Shown: positions 10,945 through 40,649 of the stretch, one piece after another
How the letters are laid out: each line of letters begins with the position of its first letter
How positions within the stretch are numbered: the first letter of the stretch is position 1
Assembly (NCBI GenBank): GCA_964017185.1
Contig: OZ024880.1
Coordinates: 42,436,329 to 42,500,328 of the forward strand
Direction: 5' to 3'
DNA length: 64,000 nt
DNA from: Rugalucina vietnamica
Lineage: Eukaryota; Mollusca; Bivalvia; Lucinida; Lucinidae
Notes under the pieces: generated by a model
Seen by the model: only the letters and a program-made list of their open reading frames with translations
What the model was told of the DNA's origin: nothing
Databases searched by the model: none
Translations under genes and position numbers: made by a program

Positions 10945-11056
10945 ATGCCAAGTGCAGGAGCAGTCTGTCCACCCCTGATAGCACCTATACGCAAATATAT
11001 TTACGGCCAGTCAACTACTCATATAGACACTTCAACTCTTATAGAAATAACATGTG
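10945..11056 (+). CDS. Exon 1 (residues 1-37), start codon
   Basis: ATG at 10945 in 'caccATGcc' (good Kozak context) opens [18 protein letters not shown]... ending TLIEIT, resembling the DZANK1 N-terminus (Val-Cys-x-Pro ... Ile-x-Pro-Ile/Leu-Arg). Donor gtgagt at 11057, phase 1. Confidence 0.75.

Positions 11057-40649: not shown

What the first reader, a model, noticed from the sequence alone, without database searches (positions are those of the whole stretch)
10945..40649. A DZANK1-like N-terminus fused to an eight-repeat annexin
Exons 1-9 carry DZANK1-type modules (hexosaminidase-C-like domain, then the 'ISPGGG...EPKIGK' module) and exons 10-24 carry two annexin cores. All 24 exon joins keep frame (1117 aa), including the crucial exon 9 (phase 0) to exon 10 (phase 0). 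I know of no described protein joining these families. It would tether a Ca2+/phospholipid clamp to a module family linked to cilia. The weak donor at 26265 (gtagat) is the least secure joint.
Basis: partly seen in the sequence, partly recalled or inferred. Interest (0 to 1): 0.88.

Follow-up and report, generated by a model that had tools for sequence, protein, structure and literature searches.

The report
DZANK1 front half fused to annexin
One gene in this animal genome appears to join the front part of a protein linked to cilia (DZANK1) to a double-length calcium- and membrane-binding annexin, most likely through recombination inside introns, but no RNA has yet been checked to show that the joined protein is made.

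Summary
The 24 exons splice at GT-AG sites into one open frame of 1117 aa. Exons 1-9 match DZANK1 chain 11xu_G1 in two colinear stretches (E 1e-32); exons 10-24 give eight annexin repeats (E 3.8e-192). The same genome also holds a full, ordinary DZANK1 on contig C4 (E 5e-171). The window gene is thus a second, partial copy without zinc ribbons or ankyrin repeats. Six introns could be compared; six of six have the same phase, four with matching flanking residues. The last is DZANK1's phase-0 intron before the ankyrin exons; here it leads into an annexin exon that also needs phase 0, the expected mark of intronic exon shuffling. Exons 1-9 have no stop, where simulated neutral decay gives 7-12. 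The only good rival annexin start found is an ATG inside exon 9. So the joined frame is probably expressed (0.8), perhaps beside a shorter annexin. The ciliary tether is weaker: DZANK1's NINL-binding zinc fingers are missing. No RNA or second species could be examined.

The parts
10945..11056 (+). exon 1, start codon, DZANK1-like N-terminus ([17 protein letters not shown]...)
   Evidence: splice model; 11xu_G1 DZANK1 match
11784..11937 (+). exon 2, Fn3_assoc / CHB_HEX_C_1 domain
   Evidence: Pfam; 49% identical to C4 DZANK1 exon 2; same intron phases 1 and 2 on its two sides
14249..14465 (+). exon 3, end of the domain and Ser/Lys-rich spacer
   Evidence: [11 protein letters not shown] against C4 DGMRESNVVTK
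14968..15118 (+). exon 4, Ser/Arg/Lys-rich spacer
15790..15977 (+). exon 5, Pro/Gly/Asn-rich spacer
16613..16784 (+). exon 6, Pro/Gln-rich, ends ISPGGG
   Evidence: 11xu_G1 second stretch
24078..24181 (+). exon 7, ISPG...EPKIGK module, 104 nt as in C4 DZANK1
25392..25467 (+). exon 8, shorter counterpart (by position and phase) of the C4 DZANK1 exon that follows EPKMGK (76 against 172 nt)
26110..26264 (+). exon 9, Lys/Glu/Pro-rich linker; phase 1 in, phase 0 out, as the Lys-rich exon of C4 DZANK1; ends [11 protein letters not shown]
   Evidence: of 7 genome rows at E<=1, only the window's own covers the linker convincingly
26244..26246 (+). in-frame ATG in good context (GCCATGG) inside exon 9: possible start of an annexin-only isoform
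26265..27135 (+). intron 9, the fusion joint; weak donor AAT|gtagat, good acceptor
27136..27217 (+). exon 10, 82-nt annexin exon, start of repeat 1 of core 1, phase 0 in
   Evidence: same length and phase as exon 18
27661..27755 (+). exon 11, annexin core 1
28971..29175 (+). exon 12, annexin core 1 (205 nt; split by an intron in 5 of 6 other loci fetched)
30160..30296 (+). exon 13, annexin core 1
31301..31490 (+). exon 14, annexin core 1
33102..33283 (+). exon 15, annexin core 1
33880..33958 (+). exon 16, end of annexin core 1
34077..34155 (+). second copy of exon 16 (1 difference in 79) behind a TC repeat, with its own acceptor and donor; including both copies would break the frame
34546..34631 (+). 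exon 17, linker between the two cores
35593..35674 (+). exon 18, start of annexin core 2 (82 nt, phase 0 in)
36047..36141 (+). exon 19, annexin core 2
37171..37375 (+). exon 20, annexin core 2 (205 nt)
38060..38243 (+). exon 21, annexin core 2
38873..39015 (+). exon 22, annexin core 2
39679..39860 (+). exon 23, annexin core 2
40572..40649 (+). exon 24, end of core 2 and stop codon; a polyadenylation-like hexamer at 40698

Best explanation
This is a real chimaeric gene. A partial copy of DZANK1 (N-terminal beta domain plus the ISPG...EPKxGK module, without zinc ribbons) was joined, by recombination inside phase-0 introns, to an annexin gene; the annexin core was doubled, apparently within this gene. 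The expected protein holds a DZANK1-type N-terminal adaptor, a long spacer that looks disordered, a Lys/Glu/Pro linker and two annexin cores with eight predicted Ca2+ sites. Most likely it works like annexin VI: when Ca2+ rises the two cores bind, and perhaps bridge, acidic membranes, and the N-terminal modules bring a protein partner to that membrane. A shorter annexin may also start at the ATG inside exon 9. Shown from sequence: exon anatomy, frame, homologies, shared intron phases, lack of decay. Inferred: transcription across intron 9, Ca2+/lipid binding, and any partner of the N-terminal modules. The 0.8 below is for the joined reading frame being transcribed as one mRNA in at least some tissue; for the adaptor function I would say 0.4.
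For: 24 exons, one open frame. DZANK1 homology over two colinear modules, E 1e-32; annexin x8, E 3.8e-192, colinear with 1avc annexin VI, E 1.6e-176. A canonical DZANK1 lies at about C4:72.4456-72.4631 Mb, minus strand (exons; DZR and Ank domains; match to 11xu_G1 over 1-742, E 5e-171). Introns compared with it: 6 of 6 have the same phase (1, 2, 1, 0, 1, 0), four of them with the same flanking residues, two by order and phase only; window introns 3-5 were not compared, because the middle parts do not align. The last shared intron is where DZANK1 goes on to KEDQLLLKE... and the ankyrins, while the window goes on to the annexin exon. Exon 10 looks like an internal exon: same 82 nt and phase 0 as exon 18, which must be spliced to exon 17, and its frame has no ATG back to the stop before 27022. 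Rival phase-0 first exons in 26265-27100 with donor score 0 or better: 2, both at one poor donor, 2.4. Neutral simulation: 0 of 300 runs without a stop at either of two divergences, mean 7.5 or 12.1 stops against 0 observed. Two places in the genome carry the DZANK1 modules, this window and C4. An acidic residue 38-43 positions after the loop glycine in 8 of 8 repeats.
Against: No RNA, cDNA or proteome was available. The intron 9 donor is the weakest of 23. The ATG in exon 9 sits in a good Kozak context, so an annexin made from its own promoter, with exon 9 as first exon, cannot be excluded. Exon 9 is matched to DZANK1's Lys-rich exon by position, phase and composition only, not by sequence. 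No second species was available to show conservation of the joint.
Confidence: 0.8

Rival explanations
1. Two overlapping transcripts share exon 9: a short DZANK1-like mRNA that ends in or just after exon 9 (read-through stop in intron 9) and an annexin mRNA that starts at ATG 26244 inside exon 9. No full fusion protein is made, or it is rare.
For: ATG 26244 in context GCCATGG gives METEQLN directly before the annexin exon; weakest donor at 26265; reading past the donor gives a stop after 55 more codons, inside a stretch that resembles the short repeat element of the window.
Against: Both products need exon 9, whose acceptor and phase fit exon 8 and whose donor and phase fit exon 10; the annexin product needs the same weak donor. 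AATAAA/ATTAAA in intron 9 occur only at 26643 and 26958, not close behind that stop.
Confidence: 0.15
2. Exons 1-9 are a decaying DZANK1 pseudogene lying by chance upstream of an intact annexin gene.
For: The zinc-ribbon and ankyrin parts are missing, as in a truncated duplicate.
Against: 443 codons without a stop although the alignable exons have diverged to 33-49% identity from C4 DZANK1; neutral simulation gives on average 7-12 stops and never zero in 300 runs at either divergence; nine exons keep GT-AG sites and frame.
Confidence: 0.03
3. The eight-repeat part is an orthologue of vertebrate annexin A6 that gained a new N-terminus, rather than an independent doubling.
For: Colinear match to 1avc over the annexin part; AU test does not reject core 1 with A6 half 1 (p 0.31) or core 2 with A6 half 2 (p 0.086); in the first, six-row tree the two cores were not a supported pair.
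Against: Cores 1 and 2 are 64% identical to each other but 45-49% to the A6 halves; in the eight-row tree they group together, support 87/92, not decisive; both carry the 205-nt exon that is split in 5 of the 6 annexin loci fetched, the sixth unresolved. PMC10154440 (passages) says the two domains of A6 probably evolved from ANXA5 and ANXA10.
Confidence: 0.1

Closest known systems
[quoted passage not shown] PDB 11xu chain G1; C4 copy in this genome)
   Same: N-terminal Fn3_assoc/CHB_HEX_C_1 domain, ISPG...EPKxGK module, and the six comparable introns in the same order and phase
   Different: No zinc ribbons, no ankyrin repeats; Pro/Gln/Ser-rich spacer in their place; annexin cores from the intron before the ankyrin exons onwards
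Annexin A6 / annexin VI (PDB 1avc, 1m9i)
   Same: Two annexin cores, eight repeats; colinear with 1avc over the annexin part
   Different: Cores 64% alike here against 48% for the two halves of bovine A6; 443 residues of DZANK1-derived and linker sequence in front, where 1avc has about ten residues before its match
Annexins with long low-complexity N-termini (A7/A11 type, label recalled; locus C3:73.9 Mb in this genome, with Pro/Tyr/Gly/Gln-rich candidate first exons)
   Same: Of the four other cores compared, the closest to core 1 (61%); same 82-nt phase-0 exon
   Different: Low-complexity N-terminus instead of folded DZANK1 modules; one four-repeat core found in the 30 kb fetched

Membership tests
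Annexin | At least four annexin repeats (PF00191) in tandem | tested here: met
   8 stretches, E 3.8e-192, score 623.1 bits, cut-off 25
Annexin | Ca2+ loop G-x-G-T (or K-W-G-T) followed by an acidic residue about 40 positions on (motif recalled) | tested here: met
   8 of 8 repeats; binding itself not tested
Annexin A6 orthologue | Each half orthologous to the matching half of vertebrate A6 | tested here: inconclusive
   cores group together at 87/92 with eight rows but not as a supported pair with six; AU p 0.31 and 0.086 for the A6 pairings; shared 205-nt exon speaks for internal doubling
DZANK1 | N-terminal Fn3_assoc/CHB_HEX_C_1 domain | tested here: met
DZANK1 | ISPG...EPKxGK module | tested here: met
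   second stretch to 11xu_G1 466-524, i-Evalue 6.1e-07; C4 counterpart 39% identical, E 3.7e-4 in the 60-kb stretch, E 0.375 in the whole genome
DZANK1 | Double zinc ribbon (DZR) | tested here: not met
   no Pfam zinc ribbon in the spliced N-terminus; no unbroken CxxC-8..28-CxxC on the + strand between 5000 and 60000; a ribbon split by an intron would be missed by the second test
DZANK1 | C-terminal ankyrin repeats | tested here: not met
   no ankyrin family in the spliced protein, E up to 1
DZANK1 | Binding to NINL and dynein-1 subunits | not testable with these tools
   published for DZANK1, NINL binding mapped to its zinc fingers (PMC4617706, abstract and passages), which are absent here

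The most novel reading that the evidence does not exclude
A DZANK1-derived annexin is a working, lineage-specific protein with two products from one gene: a full fusion that brings DZANK1 partners at centrosome, basal body or dynein cargo to Ca2+-bound membrane, and an annexin-only form from the ATG in exon 9. The fusion would be a Ca2+-gated membrane tether for a DZANK1-type transport module, made by intronic exon shuffling.
Probability: 0.25. Interest if true: 0.75.

Novelty: new variant of a known kind. Interest (0 to 1): 0.6.

Why it matters
Annexin N-termini largely set what each annexin does, and most known ones are short or low-complexity (recalled, not searched). A folded adaptor from another family joined to a doubled annexin core would be a natural experiment in wiring Ca2+-dependent membrane binding to a module of a protein that acts in dynein transport and at the cilium base. 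It is also a clear case of exon shuffling in which a full copy of the donor gene, with introns of the same phase, still stands in the same genome.

Tried and rejected
Rival annexin first exon: searched ATG plus open frame plus donor, phase 0 into exon 10. In 24182-27135 with donor score 4 or more, 6 rows: the exon 9 ATG and five others (one single residue, one tripeptide, three out-of-frame readings of exon 8). In 26265-27100 with score 0 or more: 2 rows at one poor donor. In 16785-27100 with score 7 or more: 6 rows, four of them nested ATGs of one chance frame of up to 48 residues at 22032, one single residue, one reading of exon 7. None looks like an annexin N-terminus; exons further upstream, and untranslated first exons, were not searched.

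Hidden zinc ribbons in introns: none by the CxxC pattern. Other genome copies of the DZANK1 modules: one search gave 5 rows at E<=10 (three are exons 1-3 of the window, one C4, one C7:59329012 at E 0.29, not followed up); one search gave 4 rows (three in the window, one C4). One search gave 7 rows at E<=1 for exons 9-10: exons 9, 10 and 18 of the window, three rows at other annexin loci over the 82-nt exon, and one C4 row at E 0.88.

Six-row tree: did not show cores 1 and 2 as a supported pair; trees used 4 of the 6 annexin loci fetched, the loci at C5:3.66 and C5:17.5 Mb being left out because their cores were incomplete. Searched alone against solved structures, core 1 and core 2 both had their best stretch in the first half of annexin VI, so they do not pair one to one with its halves there.

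Literature (8 searches): DZANK1 with annexin, 3 papers, none about a fusion as far as titles and abstract starts tell; multidomain annexin, 0 papers; annexin with mollusc, bivalve or family terms, 20 of 25, 20 of 74 and 7 of 7 papers listed, no such protein in titles or abstract starts; DZANK1 with cilia, 17 of 17 listed; DZANK1 or axoneme structures, 20 of 696 listed; A6 evolution, 3 of 3 listed. I claim no absence beyond these listings. PMC4617706: abstract and passages; PMC8754002: one reference-list passage; PMC4863580, PMC8037771, PMC10154440: passages; all other papers: search listing only.

Full report
What was checked. All 23 introns are GT-AG, the frame is open through 24 exons and the protein has 1117 residues. 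The N-terminal 443 residues (exons 1-9) carry Fn3_assoc (E 1.8e-13) and CHB_HEX_C_1 (E 3.9e-10); the remaining 674 carry eight Annexin matches (E 3.8e-192). [quoted passage not shown] E 1e-32); the four other rows had E 0.14 or worse. The annexin part is colinear with bovine annexin VI over nearly its whole length (query 2-663 of 674, E 1.6e-176).

The decisive comparison came from the same genome. The window lies at C12:42436329-42500328 of a 1.09-Gb assembly of 47 contigs. A search with exons 1-3 found, besides the window, one good place: C4:72461464-72461667, minus strand (46% identity, E 1.3e-9, the row running over one stop into the intron in front). The stretch around it holds a full DZANK1: the N-terminal domain, four zinc-ribbon exons, the ISPG module and ankyrin exons. 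Joined by eye, it matches 11xu_G1 almost from end to end (1-742 to 1-739, E 5e-171) and carries DZR and Ank domains. So the window gene is a second, partial DZANK1. The exons that align are 33-49% identical between the two.

Intron comparison. Six introns could be compared, and six of six have the same phase: after the first base of the Asp codon in (C/T)-D-T; after the second base of the codon before DG(L/M)(K/R)ES; after the first base of the last Gly of ISPG(G/K)G; after EPK(I/M)GK, phase 0; then phase 1; then phase 0. For the first four the flanking residues align; for the last two the match rests on order, phase and the Lys-rich make-up of the exon between them. Introns 3, 4 and 5 of the window were not compared, because that part does not align. 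In C4 the last of these introns leads to KEDQLLLKEIG and the ankyrins; in the window it leads to the first annexin exon. That annexin exon, 82 nt and phase 0 on entry, has the same length and phase as exon 18, the first exon of core 2, and as the corresponding exon of the annexin gene at C3:73.9 Mb. Joining two phase-0 introns explains why the frame runs through.

Is there a separate annexin start? Exon 10 has no ATG in its frame back to the stop before 27022. In 26265-27100 the only ATG-to-donor frames in phase 0 with a donor score of 0 or more are two that share one poor donor (2.4). In 24182-27135 the only convincing one is the ATG inside exon 9, in context GCCATGG, that gives METEQLN before the annexin. 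So exon 9 would serve both readings, and an annexin-only isoform from that ATG is a live possibility. The donor after exon 9 is the weakest of the 23 (3.4 by a profile built from the other introns, against 4.3 for the next). A GT at 26458 scores 4.4, but it lies beyond the in-frame stop that ends the read-through of exon 9. Either product needs the weak donor.

Is the N-terminal part alive? Over 443 codons there is no stop. Random substitution of the same sequence down to 47% or 69% identity gave on average 12.1 or 7.5 stops and never none in 300 runs each. The lower figure stands for the alignable exons (33-49%) and was applied to all nine exons, also to those whose homology is not shown.

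The annexin part. The two cores are 64% identical. Against four annexin cores from elsewhere in the genome (4 of 6 loci fetched) they are 51-61% identical, and against the halves of bovine annexin VI 45-49%. With eight rows they group together with support 87/92, which is not decisive; with six rows they were not a supported pair; AU tests do not reject pairing with the A6 halves (p 0.31 and 0.086). In both cores the exon DLI...KE is 205 nt long. In five of the six other annexin loci fetched the same stretch is split by an intron; the sixth was not resolved, and the array on C4 at 2.7-3.7 Mb was not fetched. This favours a doubling inside this gene. A review says that the two domains of A6 probably evolved from ANXA5 and ANXA10 (PMC10154440, passage). 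All eight repeats keep the loop and an acidic residue 38-43 positions on.

How it may work. Annexin cores bind acidic membranes when Ca2+ is present (established for the family; not tested here). The linker of exon 9 and the spacers of exons 3-6 would let two DZANK1 modules reach away from that membrane. What those modules bind is not known to me. DZANK1 and NINL act in dynein-1 transport and sit at centrosome and cilium base, but NINL binding was mapped to the zinc-finger domains (PMC4617706, abstract and passages), which the fusion lacks. So a ciliary role is a guess that leans on the family; annexins at flagella are known from diplomonads (PMC4863580, passages), which shows only that such a place is possible for an annexin.

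Verdict. The fusion is the best reading of the gene (0.8), a new variant of known kinds: an annexin with a DZANK1-derived N-terminus. RNA across 26264/27136 remains the test, and it could not be run here.

Noticed in passing
window 33880-34360: Exon 16 is present twice (34077-34155 differs at 1 of 79 positions) on both sides of a long TC repeat, with further partial copies behind (seen); either copy could be spliced, not both in frame.
   Followed up: partly
window 28346-28930 (intron 11): Three truncated copies of the start of exon 12 lie before the real exon 12, each behind a TTCTAG-like acceptor; they look like decayed tandem copies or decoy exons.
   Followed up: partly
window 26578-26622 (intron 9): A short decayed repeat of the end of exon 9 ([15 protein letters not shown] against [12 protein letters not shown]) lies behind a repeat-like stretch that begins some 10 bases after the exon 9 donor (read).
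   Followed up: no
window, e.g. 3194, 12356, 25624, 29335, 32808, 36742, 43365, 49128, 49524, 49862: A short palindromic repeat element (core GCGAAAACAAAGGC) recurs in both orientations inside and outside the gene.
   Followed up: no
window 6715-9298, minus strand: Non-LTR retrotransposon remains: 683-aa frame with reverse transcriptase (RVT_1 E 3e-31), preceded by a 185-aa frame that looks like its endonuclease by eye (not searched).
   Followed up: partly
G000 C4:2.73-3.67 Mb: 22 of the 59 annexin rows lie here, all on the minus strand: apparently a tandemly expanded annexin family.
   Followed up: no
window 63352-63999, plus strand: Open frame of 216 aa up to the window edge, acidic, no Pfam match at E<=0.01; perhaps an exon of the next gene.
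   Followed up: partly
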